Below are positions 37,550 through 51,417 of a DNA stretch of 64,000 nt, in pieces. The notes under the pieces are model-generated. The model made no database searches. It was not told where the DNA came from and worked only from the letters and a program-made list of their open reading frames with translations. Numbering within the stretch: position 1 is the first letter of the stretch; the number at the start of each line of letters is the position of its first letter. Position numbers and translations under genes: made by a program. The stretch comes from Roridomyces roridus. Its lineage: Eukaryota > Basidiomycota > Agaricomycetes > Agaricales > Mycenaceae. The stretch spans positions 62,001 to 126,000 of the forward strand of contig JARKIF010000011.1 in assembly GCA_029378245.1 (NCBI GenBank). Reading direction: 5' to 3'.

Positions 37550-40500
37550 ATGAGCGTACCCATCCCCCAACCTCCGACCCTCCCATTCCTCGGTAATGTC
37601 ACGGCACTCGACCCGGAGCTTCCGCTGCACTCGTTTATGCTCCTCGCCAAGACCTATGGTGAAATCTATCAACTTGATCTACTGGGTTCGTAGCCAATTG
37701 TATGATATGATTCGCGGAACCTCATTCATATACTTGAATGCAGGACGCACGATCTGTGTGGTCAACAGCTACGCACTGGTAAACGAAGTGTCGGACGAGA
37801 CGCGCTTTCAGAAGCGTGCCGTCGGACCAATCAAGCAAGTGAGGAATTTGGTGGGAGACGGCTTGTTTACTGTACGTAAGTCTTCCTCTTTTATCACAGC
37901 GTGGATGACTAGAGGATTGTCTCTAGGCACAACCGGAGGAGCCGAACTGGGGCATTGCGCGTGAGTGGTTCAGATTGACCCCGCATACGTGGGATGGAGT
38001 TGACGATGTCGCAGACCGCCTGCTGATGCCTGCCTTTGGGACTCTCGCGGTGAAGGGAATGATGGAGGAAATGCGCGACATAACTAGCCAATTGATCCTC
38101 AAAGTGCGTCATCCGCATTTCCTCGCAGAGGAAGTTTCTCACTGAGATTCGACCAGTGGGCGAGGTGACTTTCCACTAATGTCGCAACCCACACCCATCT
38201 CACCAACGGTAGATTCGGCCCCGACACCATCATCGACCCTTCCAAAGACTTTACGCGCGTAGCCCTCGACACGATCGCCTCTTGCTCCATGTCCCATAGA
38301 TTGAATTCGTTCTACGAAGCACAGCAGCCCGAATTCACTGTCGCCATGGCTGATTTCCTCACAGAGTCCGGCTTCCGCGCGAATAGACCTGCGATCGTAC
38401 AGGCCATTATGAGCAAGACGAATGCCAAGTACGAAGCAGATATGAAGAAGATGAGGGATTTGGCGAAGCGTAGTGCGTTATCTTCGTCTTCCTTCGTACG
38501 GTGTGTTTACTTGCGGTATAAAGTCGTGGCTACCAGAAAGGCGCATCCTATCCCGAAACACGATCTGTTGGATACGATGCTCAATTCACGAGATCCAAAG
38601 ACGGGGAAGACGATGTCCGCAGAGTCAATAGCGCAAAATGTGGGTCGACTTCAGCCCTTCGTCAACGCTCACTCACTCACTCGCATGAATAGCTTCTTAC
38701 TTTCCTCATCGCCGGTACACCCTCTTCGTTCCTCTTCATAATTAGCCCGAGCTGACGTTAACTTTCGTTCCCTGTAGGACACGAGACGTCCTCGGGTATG
38801 ATGACCTTCATGGTCTACTACCTGCTCAAAAACCCCGACGAGATGCGCAAACTCCAGGCTGAGATCGACGACGTCCTCGGTGGGCGGGCAGTGCAGTACG
38901 AGGACTTTGGAAAGCTCGCGTATTTGACTGGTGCGGCGCTCCCCTCCTCATCCCTGTTGTGTAGAGACGCTGAATTGAATCCAGCGACCATGCGCGAGAC
39001 GTTGCGCCTAGCTCCGACTGCCCCTATCCGGGTCACGACTCCGCTGGAGGATACGACTCTCGGGAATGGGAGATACGCGATTAAGAAGGGAGCAATCATT
39101 TCGGTGCAGGCGTGGCCCATGCATCGGGATCCAGCAGTTTGGGGTGATGATGTGCGTGTGTTTCATTCTTTGCCTTGATGAGGTTGAATTTGAGCTGGCC
39201 GGTCGTAGGCAGAGGAATTTCGCCCCCAGAGGATGATGGATGGAAAATTTGAGGCACTTCCGGTGCGTGCTTTGTTAGTACCGTACTTTCAATTCTCAAT
39301 CCTCGAATATCCAGCCCAACGCATGGCAACCCGTGCGTGTTCCCTCTGCTACATATTATATTGATACTGAAACTAACTGCAGTTCGGTTTTGGCGTACGC
39401 GCCTGCATTGGGCGGGCTTTTGCGTGGCAAGAAGTGACACTCGTGATGGCGACGATTATACAGAATTTCGACCTCACCCTCGTCGATCCGGGGTATACGC
39501 TACAGATCAAGCAGACGCTTACAGTCAAACCCAAAGGACTGAAGATTAGGGCTACGCCGCGGTCTGGGGTCAATTTGTATGCATCGTATGGAGTTGGGAG
39601 TGGGCTGAGAACAAGGCAGCTTCCCTCCATCGTGGAGGACGTGTCTGGGCCTCCGATGTATGTGTTTTATGGCTCGAACACGGGGACTTCCGAGGCGTTT
39701 GCGCAGAGGATAGCCGGTGAGGCGGCTTCGTATGGTATGCACGCTGCCCACGTTTATGCTGTGCAAATTTTCATGAGAGAGTCTTCCAGGCTTCCGGGCA
39801 TCAATTGGGACCCTGGACTCGGCTATGGGGAAGCTGGTGCCGGACGGGCCTTTAGTCATCATCACGGCATCGTTCGAAGGTACGCAACCAACTGAGACTG
39901 ATATCGAGTCTGACTATGGGTATGAAGGCCAACCAGCAGACAACGCAACAGCGTTCATGGACTGGCTTCGCACCATGATCAAGCCCGGGCAATTCAACGG
40001 CGTGCGCTACGCCGTGTTTGGCTGCGGCAACTCTGATTGGGTGGCGTCGTTTCAGCGAATTCCCACTCTGTACGACCAACTACTCGAGCAGGGCGGTGCC
40101 ACAAGACTCGTTGCCCGCGGGGTGGGCGATGCGGGTGGGAGTACGCTCTTCCAGGCGTTTGAGAAGTGGAACGTGGGGCTTTGGGAGACGTTGGTTGAGG
40201 TGAGTGCTGGCAGCCGGCGTTTAACGATTTTTTTTTTGTTTTTTTTTTGTTTTTTTTTTTTTTTTTTGGTGGAGCGAACAGCAAGTGAGCAACTGATCAA
40301 ATCAGCCCTCCCTCGCGCACTTTTTTCTCGGGGTGTAATTACCCACAAAGAGAAAAATTTGGAGACCCTAGGAAAATATGTTTACATACGCCGGTGTACG
40401 GCAGTGTGGGACTCAACGCCTCCCCGAAAGCCGAAGCTAACGGTTCCGCCCCGGGGGGCGGAGAGGAGCAATACCCACTAATAACCTAGACTCCCTCAGA

Positions 40501-43500
40501 GATACTGCCAGGAGATTTGTGTCGCCGTCGAGGACGTTCTTCCAAGTATTTAGGACCATTTTGAAATTGAGTGCTCTGTTCTCGAATTTGAGTTTGTCAG
40601 TCAGAATAAAATCCGAGCGAAGGCGTTCGTTGATGCATGCCAGCCACTTGTTGTGGATTTCGGCTTCTGAAGGATACTTTTCGGGGTTGCTCCCGTTGGC
40701 AATCACCCGTGTGCATCGGGTTTTCCAAATTTGGTGAGCCGTTTCGGAGATCAGAATCCGGTATAGCCGGTCCGCACTGCTATCTTTCTTCCCACTCGCA
40801 TCGTGGACTCTAGCAAAGCCGCAGGCTAGAATACCGCCCAGGGAGACCTCGGGCCAGGCATACCCTTTCATCTCCCAAAGTCGTTGGGCCAGGTTCCACA
40901 TTTTTTCTCGCCCTGGGGCATCACACTCGAGCAGGATATGCTCGAGCGTGTCGTCGACATGGCAATGTCGACATTCCGCGTAGTGCTCATACGTCGGTAT
41001 GTTGAGCCAGTACGTCCCAACCTTGTATGCCTGATGCATACATCTCCACAGGAAGTCCCTGGTTTTTCGGGTGATATCGGGGTGATAGAGCGACTTCCAA
41101 ATTTCTGCGTCGGAGTTTTCCCTCCCAGCATCGTTGCCGCGTCTCTGGCTCTTGATAGCATTTGATTCGTTTTTGCGCGATCTGGCCTCTTTCGGCGTGC
41201 TTTAAGCGCTCGGTAGAAGGTGCGTTGTGTGCCTTTACTTAGTTTCATCCCTGTGACCTTGTAGCCTTGCGGAATGTCGACATTTAAGACGGCGCCGGAC
41301 TCGCTGTCGAGCCCTTGTGTAGCTAGGGTATGTGCTTTCTGCATCCCAGTGCTATGCTCCATACACATTTTTTGGAAGGTGCATTTGGTTCCGCGACCAC
41401 GGATGGCGGCAACGATGGCTCTGAGGAGCTTGTCGTCTTCTACATTTGCCCAGTCGGTATCTTCCTTTTTCTCTAGGTCTGTTGTGAGGAGTCTGATTGT
41501 ATTCTTGCAGCCCACTTTGAAATGGAGCTCTGTCAAAAGCGGATGGCTCTGCAGCGCGCACAAGATGGCTGCCAGGTGTCCGCTTCCTTTCGATGCGAGT
41601 TCTTTAGGGACTGGGACGCCGGTATTCTTTTCATCGTCTTCTGATATCCACATACTTCCCGAGGATTTGTAGTTACCTTCCTCGTCAATCTCATATGCGT
41701 TGCCGATATATACTGTGGCCTCGGAGACGGGTTCCTCATCCTCTTGTGGTTGCAGCTGGTGTGCCGGTGTCGGTTCTGGGTCTTCCCCAAAGATTCTGAA
41801 GCCGTCCACCTTCTTTATGAGGTGTATCTTGGGGTCAAAGGTTACTGGTTTATCGTCCGCCAGCGCCGCGATATTGTCTTCCCTCTTCTGGGGTGTAAAC
41901 TCGGGATTGCGTTGGTTTACCTGCTTGCGCGGGTCCCACTTCTCTAGTAGGCAGTTGAGCATCTTCACAGCTTCCTCTTGACACTTGTACGGTGCGTTAC
42001 AACCTTTTGCTCTGTTCGCTCTGCAAGATTGACAGGCGCAGTTTCTCCGACGGGAGTGACGAGCGAAATTCCTTTCGACAATGGCTAGTATATCCCCCAC
42101 CAGGCGAGCTTCATGATTGTCTCGCAGGCAGTCTGCACAGGTGGAGTTGTTTTTTAGGCCTTCGGCACCGTAGTGGAAGAACATCGGGAGCTCCTCCTTG
42201 AGCTCTTTGGACAGGGCAAGTGCGTCGAAAGTGAGTTTGTTCCTGCGAATGGTACCGAGCATCCTTTTGATTGCCCGGGGTAGGTTCTTCTGTAGGGGTT
42301 TCCATGATTGTGTGAACGGGTTGTCCCGTACTTTTGGATCCACTGTAGTGTTCCCTTGAACCTCTTTCCGAAGCCGGCCGTTAGCAAGTGCGCTCCATTT
42401 TGCTCTCTCCCTCCCTTCTCTCGTGAGGAAGTCCCTGAGGTTTTTCAGCTCGATCGCTTCGTTACGATCCTTGATTGACAGCAAGTCTCGACCGCCTTCG
42501 TCCTTAGGCAGGAACATAATTTCGTGGTTGACTGGCGCCACTGCTTTGCCATTCCAAACGAACGTTTTGATCTTTTTATCCAGGTATTCTTCAACGTCTT
42601 TCGGCATGCCTTGTACTGCTGTTAGGTATTGGGTGATTCCTCCCACCGTGAATTGGACCACTAGTACTCGGCCACCGATAGTCGGGTTTGCTCTCCCCCA
42701 TGCTTCCAGGGATTTATTGACTTTTTCGATCGTCGGCGTCCAGATTGCCGCTTGGTCTGTGTCGTTCCCTTGCCAGCTGCCGAGAATTCTGATTGCCTCT
42801 TTGTCTTTAGCTATATGGATATGTGCATCGATGGTAGGTTGGCCGGCGTTGAGCTTGCGATCTCTGATGAATCTCGCCCGATAGGCTTTCGATCCTACCG
42901 GTATGATTTGGGTCTTGCCCTGGTTGAACTTTGCACCCGACGCCTTGCACCAGGTTGTAAGCAGGCCCATAAGGTCCTCGAAATTGTCTTGCTCAGATAG
43001 GCACACTGTCGTGTCGTCTGCGAAGAGTGCGGTAAGAATTCTCTCATTTCCGTCTGGGCATTTGAAGCCTTTTAGTCTAGACGCCCGCAGCATTTGAGCT
43101 AGTGGCTCAATGGCTAAGTTGAAGAGGAGGCATGAGACCGGGTCCCCTTGGCGTACTCCCCGGGTAACTTTGAAGCGTGAGCTTTTTTCTCCGTTGATGC
43201 AGACTGATGTATATGCGTGCTCGTAAAGTGTTTTTATCGTCTTAATGAAGTGGTTTGGTAAGTTTGCCTTCTCCATCGCTTTCCATAGATAATCATGTAA
43301 GATTTTATCGTAGGCCTTTTCCTGGTCTAGTGCTACCACTGCCCCTCCCGCCGACTCGTATTCAGCGTGGTCAATTATCGCTTCAATCAGCTTGACTTGG
43401 TCGAAGATGCTTCTGCCTGGCATGAATCCGGCTTGGTCTGGATGTATAATCTCGGGAATGGTTTCTGCCAGTTTGATCGCCAGCGCTTTGGTGAAAATTT

Positions 43501-46500
43501 TGTAATCCGCGTTGAGTAGGGTTATCGGTCTATAGTTTGACACATTTCGCTTATCATTCTTCTTGAAGAACAGGCACATCCAGCCCTCCGCAAAGTCGGT
43601 GTCAGGGTGCACCCCATACCTCTCAATGTCGTTATACACTATGGTAAGTATTTTGACGATGTTCATCGTTTCGTTCTCTTTCCCTTGAGATTTTTCGAAC
43701 CTCTGATCTAGGGTTTTCCATAGTTCGTGTACAAGCCCGTCAATACCAGGAGCTTTGCCATTTGGAAGGCGTTTGATCACCCTTCGCACTTGAGCCTCGG
43801 TTATAAACTGTGAGAGTTTAGCTTTGTTCGGTTGCGAGAGCCTGACTGAGTTCTTGAAGACTTCGTTTTCGGCTGTAGCCCTGGCCTCTGGCGAGGCTAT
43901 ATCTTGTGATTGTAGGTCATCGTGGAATTTCCTTGCTACTTCTGCCATCTTGTCTGATCGTTTCTCGTACACAGGAGGGTCTGTGCCCGGGATCTGCAGG
44001 CTGTACATAGTGTCGCGGGGCTTTTTGGCTTTATTCAAGGACGTCCAGTATTTGGTGGCGGTGGTCTCTCCGTCCAGCCGATTTTTCGCCGTGGTGTTGT
44101 CCAGAATCTTCTGGAATCTTATCCTTTCCTTAGAGTCAATTTTCTCTTGCAGGATTGCGCTTTCATTTTTTCTTTCTTCTTCCCCCATTAGGGGGTCATT
44201 CAGAGTATCGACTAATTCATCTTTCAGATCCCTGATTTCCTTGTCCATTTTTGGGACCAATCTCTTCTCCTCGTTTCGGAAGGTGGTTCTGTAGGACTCC
44301 TTCATTGCCTTGAATATCAGCTGGGGGTTATGGTCAACCGTACGTCGTTCCTCATGCTTGCTTTCCTCGCATCGTTCTGCGAACTCCAGCCCTATCGTAT
44401 CAATATTTTTCATAACTGATTCGATTTTCAGTAGCATTTGTTTCTGGGCCCATCTACCCTTGCCGACAAAAGGCATTTTCGGGTCCGAGTAGCGGAAGGA
44501 GACTAGCTGGTGATCGGTGTGTAAGCCCGAAGTTTCTATATTCCAGTCCGTCGAGTGTTCATAAATCTCTTCCTTGACCAAGATTCTGTCAATTCTCGAT
44601 TGGGACTCGGTCGCCGTTTGCAGGAAAGTGTAGCCCTTAGAGTCTGGGTGCGACTGGCGCCAACCATCAATAAGCCCGAATGTGCGTTTAAATTCTCTCA
44701 TGGCGTCTGTTACTGCAGCTGGGTCTCGGTGGTGGGGAAGCCTGTCTATGGGATCTTCGACCATGTTCCAGTCTCCGAGGCTGATGTCTGGTTTGGCAAG
44801 GCCTCGAGTTTTCTCTTCCATCCCGTCCAGGAAGGCGGCATTCTCCGCTGGATCGTTTGGTGCATACGCTGCTAGAATTGACAGCTTGCTTTCGCCGTGC
44901 CACGGTATAGTCATGTGCAGTGCTCTGCCAGGTACGACACTCTTCGTTTTGATTTGTTCGATGGGTAGTAATTCTTTATTCACAATTAGAGCCACCCCTT
45001 TTGATTGTGGGGAAGCGGGATCGATCGTCGCGTAGACCTGGAGTCGTTTTCCAAAAAGCTTGTGGATGTCCTCCACGTCGTCAGGAGAAAGGTGCGTCTC
45101 TTGTATGGCAGCAATGCCGATTCTTTTCTCTCGAACCAGCTGGTTAATCCTCATCCATTTGTCTTCACCTTTATGGTATCGTCCTCGCATGTTGAGGGTG
45201 GAGATTGTTACATAGGCCTTGGTGCGCCGCCTGTTCCTGGATTGCAGACCTTGAGGTCTGACTCGAGATTTCAAGGATTGACCTAACAAGATCCTCCTCT
45301 GGCGCTGCGATATGTTCTGTCTGTCCTGAGCGACTCGGGGTCTCGCGTTATTTAGCGCATTTTGAGCCTGGATCGGCAGCCTCTGCGGTGGATTCGCAAT
45401 TCGTCTATTTGACTGTTGTGTCTGGCGCGTTAGTCCTGACTGCGCGTTGCGCGCTACGACTGGTGCGTCGTTCCCGTGGTTTCCGGGGTTTTGCGAGAGA
45501 GAGCCCGCAGGTGTGCGTTGCACGCCGCTTCTACGCCCGTGGCTATCATCGGGAGGAGTTGTCGCGGCTCGTCCACTCCCCCCTCCAGCCCGAGTTGCTG
45601 GGTCTCTACCTGTTCCCTGTGGAGACGAAAAGGGGTGAAGTGAAGAATTTGTAGCGGTCGAGAAATCGTAACCCGGGAGCCTAACCATACTCTTGCGGGT
45701 GCCGCTGGCATATCCGTGCCAACGTCAGGGGATTTGTCGTAGGAGCTCTCGAATCACATCTGCGGGGATACCCTGGCGGGCGCAGCTTGCGTCGCTCCGA
45801 ATACGACTTAAGCCTCTCGGCCCGGCATACCCAACTCCGTCTCTCTGTCATCCCGCCCGAGGCCTTTCCTGTCCCCTGCCGAAACAAGGTCAGTAAATTT
45901 GGGGCCTCCGTTGACGGGTTGTCCTCGGGTCGTTAGACCCAAGGTGCTACCAGTCCCCACCGGCAGTGTTTAATGGAAAGGGATCGTTCCGCCCGGGCTA
46001 TGCACAAAATGTAACTAAAGACAGGGATTTAGAAAGAATTTCTAAGGCTGAGATACGTTGACAATGCAGATGAGGAATGCAGATAAATTGATAGAGGTAC
46101 ATAAAAAACAGACGAGATACCACTAGCGACGCTTGTTCCCGCGTTTCCCGGTATTCTTCCCGACGCGGCCCTCGTTGACCTTGGAGTTCCCTCGTTTGGC
46201 GTTCGAGCCTCCCTTTCCGGCTCGCTTTTCCGACCTCTGAATGGTCTCGTGCTCGTCGTGAGCCTTCGGCGCCTCGCCGAACCATCCCGGAATGCGGGGT
46301 AGGGGACAAAGCCCCACCGGATGATCGTACGACTTGCAGCCGACGCAGAAGAACTGTTCCGTCCCCTGTCGCACGATGCCGGTGCCCCAGTGGGCAGTGG
46401 GATACTCTTCGACGTCTCGTGCTGCTTTGATCCAGATCACGACGTCCTCGAAAGACATGGAAGGAGGAGGGGTGAAAAAAACGTTGAAGACGACGTCCTG

Positions 46501-49500
46501 GGCACCGCCAGGAAGAGCGATCTCGAGGTATGTGACCTCGATGGTCTCGAGACAGTTGGAGGCCGCCTCTTTATCCTCTGAAGAGGAATGGTTGACGATG
46601 AAGTCGATGGCCTTCGGCAACGACTTGATCTTGGCGATGACTGTGTCGCGAACGAACTTGACGCCCTCTTCGTAGTCGAAGATCAATAGGTTCTTGAGCG
46701 TCATGATGTACCGTGGGAGGGCAGGTGCATATGGGAAGACCATGAAAGTGATTGTCGGCGTCGACCAAACGGTTTGCTTCGTAAGTGCCACGGGGGCGGG
46801 AGGCGTTCCCTGAGCTCTTCAGCCGCCGTGGGCGGGCTGACCATGAGGGTGGGCGCGTCGACGAGGCGTGGTATGACATGCTTGAGACGTTGAACGGTCT
46901 CGCGAGGGTTCGGGTCGTAGGATGCGCGGTAGACGCGGACCCATCCCTTGTTGCCCTCCGTGGCCTCGAAGTCGAGTATGTTCTTGTCGGTCATGTTGCG
47001 CGTGAACTTCTCCATCATCTCGGGGAAGCGGGAGCCCGCAGCAGGGGGGGTCGTATACTGTTGGCCATTGGTCTTGGTCGTTACCCCCTGGAGGGCTTGG
47101 TCTAGCCAGTCACACGTAAGTTGTGCTTGTCCGAGGGATCGACGAGGCACACTCACATTTGTTGGCTGTGTTGGGCGTGTCCATCTTTTTGAAGCGGAGG
47201 GTGGTTGGTAGATCTTTGGTGATCACGGAGGTGGTGGTGGAGGTGTTCGTCGGTGTTGGGACAATGGGGGAGGTGGGGGGTGTTACGCTGCGTCGCTCCT
47301 CTTCGGGCTCGGACTCGTAGTCCTGCAGATCGTTTCCGGTGTCGTCGTCCGATGGTGGAAAGTCGGTGGGGTGGGATTGGGGTGGGAGGCGTGGCCGCTT
47401 GCGATCGTGAGATGGGGAGGACTCGCGGCGTTTCCTCTTGGCCTTTTGGGCTTGGTGGTTTTCGGAGATAATCAGCGTGAAGTGAGTTGGGGGGATGCAG
47501 TGGCTAGCGTTTTCGTCTTAAGTATGTGTTGCACGGAGGACAAAGGTCCTATCTTTATTGCGCACCAAAGGGGCCATTGAAACTCAAGCACTCATAGTCC
47601 ATCCTTTATCGCCTTTGTTTGTCACGGGAATGCGCACGTGTTTGTCGGTGTGGTGGCATTGGTGTCGCGGGGCCGCGACGGCTTTGGGCGTGTCTGGTGT
47701 GCTAGGATGTCTCTCTCCGTGGTGGACAGAACCGCCCGTCGTGGTGGGGAAGGAAGGCATTTGTCATTGGCAGAAGAAGTTTGATCCGCGCGGATATGCC
47801 GGAATTTCACGTTGCCTCAGGCCCGTCGGCGGTGGCATGGTGGGTCGGGCCGCATTCGAGTGTACATTTTACTTGGTTTGTGTCCGTACGACTTCTCTAT
47901 GCGAGAAAAAACACTCCAGGTCTCGAGGAGTGCCGGGTGCCTCTGAGTATCAGTGGCACCCTACCTCACTGTGAGACCCGGGGCACATGAAAATCATGTC
48001 CCTCGGTACCCCCCAATTCATGTCTGGATTGCATGAATATCAAAGCAACGCGCATTAAAATCACCTCCCTTTCGGTGAAGTACGCAATTTCGATTCATGT
48101 CCGTTTTCGACGTTTTCATGTGCCTTTTTCATGTCCTCTTGACATGAAAATGACTGGGAAGCCAGTGAGTCCAATTTGAGTCAGGCCGTATGATAATGAA
48201 TACTATTCCCTGGGACCCCGAATTTCAGATGAAAGGAATGTGAATTTCAAACTAAATGTACGTGATACAACGATGTGCTACTTGCACCCGCCCACTCTCA
48301 CCTCCGCCATCCGCATCATTGGAGTCGATAACTTCACTGTCGGCTGAGATTCATCATGATTAGAAGGTGTCCGGCCCGAGGAGATCAACAGTACATACCT
48401 CGAGTTGCGTGAAGCGGAGCGGGAAGGTCTCGTAGCATCAAGAGCAATGGATGGGGTACGCACTGGAGATCGGAGCGAGAGTCGCCGCCGCCGGCGTTCC
48501 AATTCTGACCGCCGCTGACTTGAGGACTTCTTGAGTTCGTGTTGGGTCAGAACAGAGTGAATAAAGCGGAATCAGCGACGCACCGGATACCCTTTGGCCT
48601 CAGCGGTGAGTCAGAATCGAGTTCTACACCTAATTGTGACTGCCACGGCGGCTTGGGTACGCCGCCAGACGTGTGGTCGCTGGGAGGTCCCACAAGCGCC
48701 GTGAGGGTATGAGAAGGTGTATATTGGCATGTAGTTGAGTCGATGGGGGGCTTCTGTGGCGAACGAGTGGAAGAGGAGGACGGGGGCAGAAGGGAGGTGA
48801 CGGTTGGGAGGAAGGAGTGGAGCGCCGTGACAGGCGTGACACCACTGACCTCATCCGCAGCAGCCGCTCCACACAACGAATTTCCGCCCTTCTCAAGTCC
48901 GTCTCCGTTCAAATATCCCACCGTGGAACAGCGTGGTCGTCGAGGGATGTCTGGATGGGGTACAGATCGATCGAAGAACATCCTAGCTTGATCAATATTC
49001 ATTTCCATCTTTCTCGTTGATTTTCATGCATTTCTCCCATGATTTCGGCTTCGCAAATTCAGTGGAACTGTTCCTGAAATTCACCAAAGAGACCATGATT
49101 TTGTACTTGGCGCGGAGTGAGTCAAAATCACTCAATAATGCCTGAATGACCCCAGGTGCATGATATGTTCATTTCAGCCCATGGCCCCTGATTCTGCTTG
49201 TTCATGGCACGGCGACATGAAATTCATGCACCGATGTTTTCACAGTGCCTTTATGGTGGTAAAGGTCCAAGAGCCCCCGTTTAACGATTGTTCAACCGAT
49301 TGGGATGAAGACCTATTCGACCAAGCGGACGGAGAATGTGATGCCCACGATTCAAGTGAAGACGGTGGATATGGGCAAGGAGCGTGCGATTGCGCTGGGG
49401 CAGACGGATTTGCGTCTTGGACGGGTCGTTGAGAATCGGATTCTCACGAAAGATGGACCTGTGAAGAGACATATCGGTGTGTCCTATTTGTCAAAATGCC

Positions 49501-50766
49501 ACAATGTCGCTCATGTTCTTCATGTAGAATTCGAGCTTCCCGAAGGGAGTACTTTCTCAGCCGGGGATTATATCGCAATGTACGTCCAATCACGCCATCC
49601 CCGCTCTTTCTGACTCTACCATAGCTTGCCTCAGAATCCTATCCGCGATGTGAAACGCGTGCTCGCGAGGTTCAGTGTCTCCAACGAGGAGGAGGTCATT
49701 CTCTCCTCAATCGGTCCCACATTCCTTCCCGTGGGCAAAGCCATCAAATTGTCCGAGCTTCTCAGCGGGTATCTCGAGCTAACTCAACCAGCGACCACGA
49801 AAGATCTCGGAGTACTTCTGCACGCAGCCTCAATCGCATCGACTCGGGCCTATCTAGAGCAATTGAAGAGCTCATACAACGAGTCGCGGCTCAGCGTCTT
49901 GACCATCCTGGAGTCCCAGCCCGACGTCGACCTCCCCATCGGCGTTTTTCTGGGAATGCTCCCTCCCATGCGCGTACGCCAATATTCGATATCCTCGTCG
50001 CCATTGTGGAACTCGCGTCATGTTAGCCTAACGTTCAGCGTGTTCGAGAGACCGTCTCTCTCGATTTACGATTCTCCACCGCCGCTCCTCGGCGTGGGCT
50101 CCAACTACCTCGCAAACCTACTCCCGGGTGACCGCGTGCTGATGGCCGTGCGGCATTGCAAGTCAAACCCCTCAACGTACGCGTTCCGTCTACCGGAGGA
50201 TGCCAGCACGCCCGTGGTGATGTTTTGCGCCGGTTCGGGTATCGCGCCGATGCGGGGATTTATCCAGGAGCGGGCAGCGCAGAGGGCGTCGGGGTGTGAA
50301 GTCGGCAAGATGATCTTGTTCTTTGGGTGTCGGGCGCCCGAATTGGATTTCCTGTACGCCGAGACGGACATCAGGGAGTGGGTGCGGCTTGGGCTGCTTG
50401 ATGTTCGGTCGGCATTTTCGAGGAAACCGCAGGAGTCTGAGGGCTGCGTGTATGTTCAGCAGTGAGTGTTTTGAGGATAAGTATCGTTCAGCACGCCTGG
50501 CTGAGCTTGCATTCATTCAGCCGGGTTTGGCATGATCGAGCGGATGTTGTGGCGGCTTATAAAAACGGAGCATCGGTAAGTTCTTGCCTGTTGCTTGCCT
50601 ATTTTTATTCCAATCGTGATAGTTTTTCACTTGTGGGTCCTCCGCTGTGGCGAAAGGTGTCAAAGCAACGTTGTTGGAGATCATCAAGGAGGCGGAGAAC
50701 TGTGATGACACCGAGGCTGCGACGAGGCTCAAAACGATTAAATACGCTACCGAGATTTTCGAGTGA
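37550..50766 (+). CDS. CYP505-type self-sufficient cytochrome P450 (P450-reductase fusion) with a LINE in one intron
   Basis: A fused monooxygenase like P450foxy and bacterial BM3. NADPH electrons pass through FAD and FMN to the heme, and known members hydroxylate fatty acids near the omega end. It starts at the ATG at 37550 (MSVPIPQPPTLPFLGNV). Heme domain: GHETSSGMMTFMVYYLL (I helix), TMRETLRLAP (ExxR) and FGFGVRACIGRAFAW with the heme Cys. FMN domain: YVFYGSNTGTSEAFAQRI, PLVIITASFEG, QPADNATAFMDWL. After LWETLVE the frame enters an intron (40200-49310) that holds a 9-kb LINE. Coding resumes as TYSTKRTENVMPTIQV. The reductase part follows: LPQNPIRDVKR, RQYSISSSPLW, GSGIAPMRGFIQERA, FFGCRAPELDFLYAE, ending ATEIFE at 50766. 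All catalytic motifs are present and many short introns are clean. The 9.1-kb intron probably reduces or abolishes full-length mRNA. No gene symbol is assigned because orthology is unproven. Confidence 0.88.
40218..40229 (+). repeat. Target-site duplication, left copy
   Basis: CGTTTAACGATT directly before the poly(T) tract (poly(A) on the LINE's own strand). It is identical to 49278-49289. The first C may be coincidental, giving 11 or 12 bp. Confidence 0.85.
40437..45688 (-). CDS. LINE ORF2: endonuclease / reverse transcriptase / RNase H-like, one frameshift
   Basis: The main frame covers 45688-40868 (1606 codons). After a disordered Arg/Gln-rich head comes an APE-type endonuclease (TISTLNMRGRY, IAAIQETHLS, SLGDWNMVEDP, TDHQLVSF). 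The reverse transcriptase follows, with GIDGLVHELW, NYRPITLLNADYKIFTKALA, DQAGFMPGRS, VVALDQEKAYDKI, TRGVRQGDPVSCLLFNLAIE and the catalytic FADD in ALFADDTTVC. An RNase H-like region starts near ATVYIGNAYEIDEEG. It lacks the usual acidic residue before AAI (GHLAAILCAL) and looks degenerate. Near 41175, in a run of five A, the frame shifts. The conserved end, FLWRCMHQAYKVGTYW, then ECRHCHVDDTLEHILLEC, lies in the other frame and stops at 40437. Polyprotein activity needs all parts in one frame, so this copy is likely inactive unless the shift is tolerated. Confidence 0.88.
46123..47530 (-). CDS. LINE ORF1 (gag-like), frameshifted
   Basis: The nucleic-acid-binding chaperone ORF of the LINE. The upstream part is basic and acidic low complexity (KRKRRESSPSHDRKRPRLPP, DYESEPEEERRS), then EMMEKFTRNMTDKNILDF, GWVRVYRASYDPNPRETVQR and VDAPTLMVSPPTAAEELRER. 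Near 46785 the frame shifts and the reading continues as ALTKQTVWSTPTITFMVFPY and GTEQFFCVGCKSYDHPVGLC, a CxxC-x4-H-x4-C knuckle, then a Lys/Gly/Arg-rich tail to the stop at 46123. The start is not certain: a GTGAGT...CTAG span at about 47100-47155 may be an intron or a second lesion. The C-terminal zinc knuckle and context make the ORF1 assignment good. Confidence 0.7.
47531..49277 (-). other. 5' region of the LINE
   Basis: Long presumed 5' untranslated region. A minus-strand open frame at 48547-49008 (MEMNIDQARMFFDRSVPHPD) has no recognised domain. The motif CATGAAA/TTTCATG recurs at about 47987, 48107, 48126, 48144, 49020 and 49216 in both orientations, so a small inserted element or regulatory repeat may be included. 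I could not define its ends. Confidence 0.4.
49278..49289 (+). repeat. Target-site duplication, right copy
   Basis: CGTTTAACGATT, identical to 40218-40229. It is followed by the remaining 21 bp of the original CYP505 intron, up to the acceptor GATGAAG at 49310. Confidence 0.85.
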
Positions 50767-51417
50767 AAGGGTGACTGTTCAGTAAGTAGTTGCCTCAGAA
50801 TCCTATCCGCCTAACCCTAACCCAAAGTCTGTGCCTACACCCCGGCGGAATGCAGTGCCTTCAGTCTGCTTGGCAGGATTTCACCCACTGTTACTTACTC
50901 AATTTTCTGCTCCCGCGATCCCGGCCACTGCTGCTGTTCATTTTCCATCCTGATCTCGGCCGTCCTCATATTGCTGTTCTCGCTACCCCAGTTCTCAGTT
51001 TCTTCCGTCAACCTCCTTCGGGCCCATCTTTGATTTCTCTATGCTATCTCTATGCTATCCTGTGCTTGAAGTTCTGGTTTGAGATGGCTGGCTTGCGCCA
51101 ACCTGTTGACAGCAACAGTTGACGTGGGAACAGAGCCAACACGCCGACAAGACCTCTGAACGCAGTGCTTGTAGCCTCAGCAGTATTAATGCATATTTTG
51201 CTTCGTACTATTTACGGTTTGAGAATCTCAACGAACTGTCAAATACCGATGCAAAAGGATCTGGTGGCGGAGCGCAGCAGAGGTTTGTTCTACTCTCTCT
51301 CACGCAATTCACGCTGTCGATCTCACTTTTGCAATCCGGGATTCTCTGTTGTTCATCCATTCATTTAAATGCTGTCTTTGAACTTCTCAGGCTCTTACAA
51401 GTCACCCTCTTCCCCTG
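50767..51417. other. Spacer between CYP505 and the ARM gene
   Basis: No supported gene. An exact 21-bp copy of part of a CYP505 exon (TTGCCTCAGAATCCTATCCGC in the gene at about 49624) recurs at about 50789, immediately downstream of the CYP505 stop. Confidence 0.45.

What the first reader, a model, noticed from the sequence alone, without database searches (positions are those of the whole stretch)
40200..49310. 9-kb LINE in a CYP505 intron turns a 51-bp intron into 9.1 kb
The target duplication CGTTTAACGATT flanks the LINE. The remaining flanks (40200-40229 and 49290-49310) add up to a normal 51-bp intron with GTGAGT donor and AAG acceptor, joining LWETLVE to TYSTKRT in frame. All P450 and reductase motifs are still present. 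Fungal spliceosomes rarely handle such lengths, so this is either a very recent knock-out or a test case of long-intron splicing.
Basis: partly seen in the sequence, partly recalled or inferred. Interest (0 to 1): 0.75.

Follow-up and report, generated by a model that had tools for sequence, protein, structure and literature searches.

The report
Transposons split a mushroom P450 gene
In a bonnet mushroom, two nested jumping genes have stretched one tiny intron of a fatty-acid-oxidising enzyme gene from 51 to 9,111 bases, which probably cuts the enzyme short; this is an ordinary kind of event, but a clean case for testing how fungi splice very long introns.

Summary
The window lies on a 2.07-Mb contig of Roridomyces roridus (Mycenaceae). 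A 20-exon CYP505-type P450-reductase gene (37550-50766, 1050 aa, no stop) has 18 introns of 45-63 bp and one of 9,111 bp (40200-49310). A 12-bp target duplication flanks the insert; without it the intron is 51 bp and in frame. The insert is not one 9-kb LINE. It is a 7.76-kb full-length antisense LINE, itself interrupted near its 5' end by a 1,281-bp high-copy CACTG-ended DNA transposon with a 3-bp duplication. Intact exons downstream say little about function: scaled from the LINE's own two frame-breaking deletions, about 0.4 such lesions would be expected there. The LINE's poly(A), read as 36 T of 38 bases, lies directly behind the duplicated branch-point-like TTTAAC and is followed by usable AGs. 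The four nearby acceptors translated, and retention, end the protein at 633-726 aa, before the FAD/NADPH domains. The public annotation also splits the gene (654 and 230 aa). Most likely: a recent disruption by cryptic splicing. Splicing of the full 9.1 kb is not excluded; no RNA was available. A new example of a known kind.

The parts
37550..40199 (+). CYP505-type gene, exons 1-15 (P450 and FMN domains), 14 introns of 48-63 bp
   Evidence: its 633 residues are identical to residues 12-644 of public protein P0184
40200..49310 (+). Intron 15, 9111 bp, GTGAGT...AAG
40218..40229 (+). Target-site duplication, left copy CGTTTAACGATT, holding branch-point-like TTTAAC
40230..40267 (-). Poly(A) tail of the LINE, 36 T of 38 bases on the gene strand, with two G
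40278..40281 (+). Predicted cryptic acceptor ACAG, 14 bp past the poly(T) run; intron of 82 bp; score 4.5 against 3.0 for the native acceptor
40302..40305 (+). Acceptor TCAG implied by public protein P0184 (tail PSLAHFFLGV); score 2.9
40230..47966 (-). LINE body (with 49251-49277 about 7.76 kb), antisense to the gene
40868..45724 (-). LINE ORF2 open frame: AP-endonuclease and reverse transcriptase; a frame-breaking deletion near 41111 relative to the C240 copy
40437..41201 (-). LINE ORF2 C-terminal part in another frame, zf-RVT match below its curated cut-off
46123..47517 (-). LINE ORF1 region, open in pieces; 40 bp missing near 46776-46780 relative to the C240 copy
47967..49247 (.). Nested 1281-bp DNA transposon without a long ORF, ends CACTGTGA/TCACAGTG, 3-bp duplication CCT
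49251..49277 (-). 5' end of the LINE beyond the nested element; same 5' end in the C240 and C2 copies
49278..49289 (+). Target-site duplication, right copy, also carrying TTTAAC
49311..50766 (+). Exons 16-20 (FAD and NADPH domains), introns 45-59 bp
   Evidence: public fragment P0003 equals the model from residue 821

Best explanation
A full-length LINE was inserted by target-primed reverse transcription, antisense, into the 51-bp intron 15 of a CYP505-type gene of Roridomyces roridus. Later a 1.28-kb CACTG-ended DNA transposon inserted about 30 bp inside the LINE's 5' end (both read from the sequence; the insertion mechanism follows from tail and duplication). The target duplication copied the branch-point-like TTTAAC, and the LINE's poly(A) reads as a T tract (36 of 38) just behind the first copy. 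The intact donor at 40200 therefore has, within about 110 bp, a branch-point-like sequence, a pyrimidine tract and an AG (40281, or 40305 as in the public model). Because fungi define introns over short distances, splicing or read-through should stop here rather than bridge 9.1 kb (inferred). The product would be P450 plus FMN domain of 633-726 aa without the FAD/NADPH domains, so no self-sufficient enzyme is made (inferred).
For: Perfect 12-bp duplication and 51-bp in-frame empty intron. LINE 5' end shared with two other copies. Nested element differs from its nearest sibling at 3 of 1281 sites. Acceptor scores: 40281 4.5 against native 3.0; the other 18 introns are 45-63 bp. The unspliced product and those of four cryptic acceptors all stop before the FAD domain. 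Public gene models split the gene, the first using the 40305 acceptor. Fungi are concluded to splice mainly by intron definition (PMC2397502, passages). Antisense Alu poly(A) acts as a polypyrimidine tract for cryptic splice sites (PMC3629564, passages). Intronic human L1 causes exonization, intron retention and premature ends (PMC3192792, abstract and passages).
Against: No RNA evidence. The public models may be mere predictions with an intron-length limit. All 3' exons are open. TTTAAC is 57 nt from the 40281 acceptor, while in the other 18 introns the best-scoring branch-point-like motif lies 11-36 nt from the acceptor (the scan was limited to 8-44 nt); the 40305 acceptor has a CTGAT at 9 nt but scores only 2.9. 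The acceptor scores come from 18 introns of one gene, and the branch-point weights were set by hand. In human cells long U-tracts also attract a repressor of such sites (PMC3629564, passages).
Confidence: 0.65

Rival explanations
1. The 9.1-kb intron is removed accurately, at least in part, and the gene still makes a full-length self-sufficient P450.
For: Native donor (score 9.2, within the range 4.8-11.1 of the other 18), branch-point-like TTTAAC 26 nt from the acceptor, and an AAG acceptor also used by introns 6 and 14, are all kept. All exons are open; at the upper age limit and an assumed indel rate the chance of that without selection would be only 0.12.
Against: The intron is more than 140 times longer than the longest other intron of the gene; nearer acceptors exist; scaled from the LINE's own lesions, open 3' exons have a chance of 0.67 without selection; public models do not join the halves.
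Confidence: 0.2
2. The gene is dead or silenced as a whole, for example by heterochromatin spreading from the elements, so splicing choice hardly matters.
For: The reductase half evolves unusually fast, including the FMN part upstream of the LINE; a full-length paralogue P0180 exists.
Against: The P450 half evolves at an ordinary rate (ranks 29-33 of 51 in three segments), and no broken exon is found.
Confidence: 0.12
3. Assembly artefact: the element was wrongly joined into the gene.
For: The LINE and the 1.28-kb element are repeats, a usual cause of misjoins.
Against: Exact 12-bp duplication, correct orientation of the tail, and an exact 3-bp duplication of the nested element. The 3' exon stretch matches once at this locus and otherwise only the C458 paralogue at 67%; no second allele appears among the P0180 matches.
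Confidence: 0.03

Closest known systems
Antisense Alu exonization in primates
   Same: Antisense poly(A) becomes a pyrimidine tract that helps a cryptic acceptor (PMC3629564, passages)
   Different: Here the branch-point-like sequence comes from the host target duplication, the element is a 7.8-kb LINE, and the host gene has introns near 50 bp; no RNA shown
Intronic human L1 interference (retention, exonization, premature polyadenylation)
   Same: Predicted outcome classes (PMC3192792, abstract and passages)
   Different: The 50 L1s counted there lie in the same direction as the host gene; here the LINE is antisense
Tad-clade fungal LINEs
   Same: Two ORFs, endonuclease and reverse transcriptase in ORF2, poly(A) tail (compare PMC4427930, passages)
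   Different: RNase H not detected here; clade not tested by a tree
CMC (CACTA/CACTG) DNA transposons
   Same: CACTG ends and 3-bp duplications; the superfamily signature is recalled
   Different: Only 8 perfect terminal bases; no transposase looked for
CYP505 / P450foxy / PC-foxy
   Same: P450-FMN-FAD-NADPH fusion; up to 71% identity to Mycena 'fatty acid hydroxylase'
   Different: Its reductase half has the longest terminal branch of the 69 proteins compared

Membership tests
CYP505-type P450-reductase fusion | P450, flavodoxin, FAD and NADPH domains in one frame-consistent gene | tested here: met
   Domains found in separate exon stretches and in the two public halves; frame consistent
CYP505-type P450-reductase fusion | At least 40% identity to a named CYP505 (rule recalled) | not tested
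   Hits carry names such as fatty acid hydroxylase or PC-foxy1, not CYP numbers
Non-LTR retrotransposon (LINE) | Reverse transcriptase and AP-endonuclease | tested here: met
   PF00078 E 9.4e-36, PF03372 E 9.7e-7
Non-LTR retrotransposon (LINE) | Poly(A) tail and target-site duplication of variable length | tested here: met
   36 T of 38, 12-bp duplication; the duplications of other copies were not measured
Tad-clade LINE | RNase H domain in ORF2 | tested here: inconclusive
   No Pfam match at E up to 10
Tad-clade LINE | RT phylogeny within the Tad clade | not tested
   No tree with named clades was made
CMC (CACTA/CACTG) DNA transposon, non-autonomous | Inverted ends beginning CACTR (recalled) | tested here: met
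   CACTGTGA/TCACAGTG
CMC (CACTA/CACTG) DNA transposon, non-autonomous | 3-bp target duplication (recalled; 2-3 bp) | tested here: met
   By eye: window copy CCT, and 7 of the 8 copies with both ends shown (9 printed of 19 compared); L026 shows none and L040 lacks one end
CMC (CACTA/CACTG) DNA transposon, non-autonomous | Related autonomous transposase in the genome | not tested
   No search made
Antisense poly(A) exonization | Antisense orientation, poly(T), downstream AG | tested here: met
Antisense poly(A) exonization | RNA spliced to the cryptic acceptor | not testable with these tools
   No RNA data; P0184 is a gene model of unknown basis

The most novel reading that the evidence does not exclude
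The gene is in the act of domain fission: the reductase was already under relaxed constraint, the P450 domain was not, and the antisense LINE supplies a ready-made acceptor and stop that turns a self-sufficient P450-reductase into a P450-FMN stump that may draw electrons from a separate reductase. Two places in the genome match the reductase part alone at 30-39% (C223, C128), as a separate reductase would; they were not examined. Support is suggestive only: normalised reductase/P450 terminal-branch ratio 2.18, rank 1 of 49 tips but with two others at 2.16 and 2.12 and z only 1.27; z about 2 among the 26 and 18 longer-branch tips; thresholds chosen after seeing the data; the same-species paralogue is raised too, at 1.52.
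Probability: 0.1. Interest if true: 0.6.

Novelty: new member of a known kind. Interest (0 to 1): 0.35.

Why it matters
Fungal introns are short and thought to be recognised as units. This locus offers an intron grown from 51 to 9,111 bp with its native splice signals and all exons intact, and defined competing acceptors 82-106 bp from the donor. It therefore allows a direct test of length limits and cryptic-site competition in a mushroom. It also shows how a transposon in an intron can split a gene in public annotation, and that intact exons alone cannot tell a working gene from a recently broken one.

Tried and rejected
A single 9-kb LINE: rejected. Exon integrity as evidence of function: weak. 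No stop in 1537 ORF2 codons puts divergence since insertion at 1.7% or less. At that limit 0.68 nonsense changes and, at an assumed 0.1 indel per substitution, 1.41 frame-breaking indels are expected in the 1254 bp of 3' exons, chance of none 0.12; at 0.5% the chance is 0.54; scaled from the two frame-breaking deletions of the LINE it is 0.67. LINE-to-LINE divergence as an age: rejected, since dN/dS 0.092 shows the difference built up in active source elements. Deviation at invariant positions as a sign of decay: 6 of 220 such columns (3 of 128 before and 3 of 92 after the intron), tied third of 64 proteins with P0182, none in a motif that I recognise; not decisive. Greater divergence after than before the insertion: ratio 1.17, rank 4 of 64, not distinctive. 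Paralogue intron check: no intron there, so it does not corroborate the intron. Second allele: none found. My first model had intron 6 off by three bases (1049 aa); corrected to 1050 aa. Searches use the 1049-aa version, so their residue numbers after intron 6, and the product lengths (632-725), are one lower than (633-726). Paper searches: the species name with genome and transposable element gave 0 papers, and the name alone 4, seen as a listing; a Mycena genome search was seen as a listing only; searches for similar fungal cases showed no such case among the listed titles and abstract starts, of which I opened passages of PMC11649378, PMC2397502 and PMC5034255. That is no proof of absence.
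Full report
Where it is. The window is G000:C13:62001-126000 of a 90.8-Mb assembly in 501 contigs. Two public proteins of Roridomyces roridus, on a contig of 2,068,246 bases, match: P0003 lies wholly within the gene model, and residues 12-644 of P0184 equal model residues 1-633. C13 has the same length as that contig. The organism is therefore taken to be R. roridus (Mycenaceae).

The gene. Exons 1-20 (37550-50766) read as 1050 aa without a stop. The 18 ordinary introns are 45-63 bp; intron 15 is 9,111 bp. P450, flavodoxin, FAD-binding and NADPH-binding domains are found in the exons. The closest full-length proteins are 'fatty acid hydroxylase' models of Mycena species at up to 71% identity. 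Among the genome matches scored with P0180 (44 of 251 candidates) there is one other full CYP505-type gene, on C458, which encodes P0180.

Is the intron real? At the junction 116 of 119 homologues have no inserted residue, P0156 has one, and P0179 and P0224 have 22 each. Of 22 internal inserts of 16 or more residues among these homologues, 14 lie within 1.5 residues of an intron of this gene, two of them being those at the junction, so they look like introns kept in gene models; 8 do not. Against this, the C458 paralogue runs on without an intron at the site, so the intron is not shared by both genes. The empty intron is 51 bp, has no stop in frame, and would add 17 residues if kept.

The insert. 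A DNA search of the genome with the insert gave 42 matches, a lower bound and including the insert itself. They show two units. Window 47967-49247 is an independent repeat: 17 other places match all or nearly all of it at 95-100%, 8 more at 74-85%, and 4 match it in part (counted from the rows). The nearest sibling differs at 3 of 1281 sites. It ends in CACTGTGA/TCACAGTG and carries a 3-bp duplication CCT; 7 of the 8 other copies with both ends shown have 3-bp duplications too, read by eye. The rest is a LINE of about 7.76 kb. In the copies on C240 and C2 the 30 bp on the far side of the nested element run directly on into the LINE body, which shows the nesting and that this LINE is full length.

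Age. Compared with the C240 copy, the window LINE lacks 40 bp in ORF1 (aligned as 19 plus 21) and has a 4-bp frame-breaking deletion late in ORF2; other gaps inside the ORFs are multiples of three or cancel locally. Over 1537 ORF2 codons dS is 0.563 and dN 0.052, ratio 0.092, with no stop, so nearly all difference arose while the lineages were active. The lack of a stop puts post-insertion divergence at or below 1.7% (rule of three, assuming neutral change after insertion; stops were not counted this way in ORF1 or after the ORF2 deletion). C240 and C2 ORF2 differ at 1 base of 5289, so this LINE family has moved recently. Open 3' exons are then weak evidence: the chance of no lesion without selection is 0.12 at the 1.7% limit with an assumed indel rate, 0.54 at 0.5%, and 0.67 when scaled from the LINE's own two frame-breaking deletions.

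Mechanism. The left target copy holds TTTAAC, followed by 36 T of 38 bases and then AGs, among them those ending at 40274, 40281, 40285 and 40305. With a small matrix from the other 18 introns, the native acceptor scores 3.0, ACAG at 40281 4.5 and the 40305 site 2.9; two further AGs, at 40371 and 40404, score 5.1 and 5.2; the donor scores 9.2, in the normal range. Retention gives 726 aa, and the four acceptors give 701, 637, 633 and 643 aa. All lack the FAD and NADPH domains. The public model P0184 is 11 residues, then model residues 1-633, then PSLAHFFLGV, the tail expected from the 40305 acceptor. P0003 starts at an internal methionine of exon 18. Whether RNA supported these models is not known to me.

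Knowledge. Splicing in fungi is concluded to proceed mainly by intron definition, with mostly short introns (PMC2397502, passages). In the mushroom Schizophyllum commune intron retention is the commonest event and exon skipping is rare in coding regions (PMC5034255, passages). Antisense poly(A) acting as polypyrimidine tract is described for Alu, together with a repressor that binds long U-tracts (PMC3629564, passages). Intronic L1 causing exonization, retention and cryptic polyadenylation is described for human genes, in same-direction cases (PMC3192792, abstract and passages). That the same happens in this mushroom is inference.

Domain rates. On a fixed topology of 69 proteins the terminal branch of this gene is 0.209 for the P450 part (rank 7), 0.563 for FMN (rank 1) and 0.545 for FAD/NADPH (rank 3). 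The normalised ratio of reductase to P450 is 2.18, first of 49 tips with a P450 branch above 0.05, but two others reach 2.16 and 2.12, FAD/NADPH alone ranks third, and z is 1.27. Among the 26 and 18 longer tips it stands out more (z 2.02 and 2.01), with P0180 of the same species second at 1.52. The FMN part lies upstream of the insertion, so if the acceleration is real the insertion did not simply cause it. This was looked for after the fact and is only suggestive.

Judgement. Anatomy: firm. Consequence: probably truncation (0.65), possibly full splicing (0.2). It is a new example of a known kind of event, tidy enough to be worth one RNA experiment.

Noticed in passing
49626-49646 and 50790-50810: A 21-bp exact repeat: the start of exon 18 recurs 23 bp after the stop codon, followed by telomere-like CCTAACCCTAACCC; these are the only two exact places of the 21-mer in the genome searched. 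It looks like a repair scar with copied filler.
   Followed up: partly
L022 (C240) and L023/L047 (C2): Two other LINE copies differ at 1 base of 5289 in ORF2, a sign of very recent activity; the C2 copy is itself interrupted by about 2 kb of other sequence.
   Followed up: partly
47967-49247 and L024-L040: A high-copy, very uniform CACTG-ended element family of about 1.28 kb in R. roridus, apparently recently amplified.
   Followed up: partly
38473-38523, 39880-39927 and 40200-49310: Three of 19 introns of the gene end in AAG rather than CAG or TAG.
   Followed up: no
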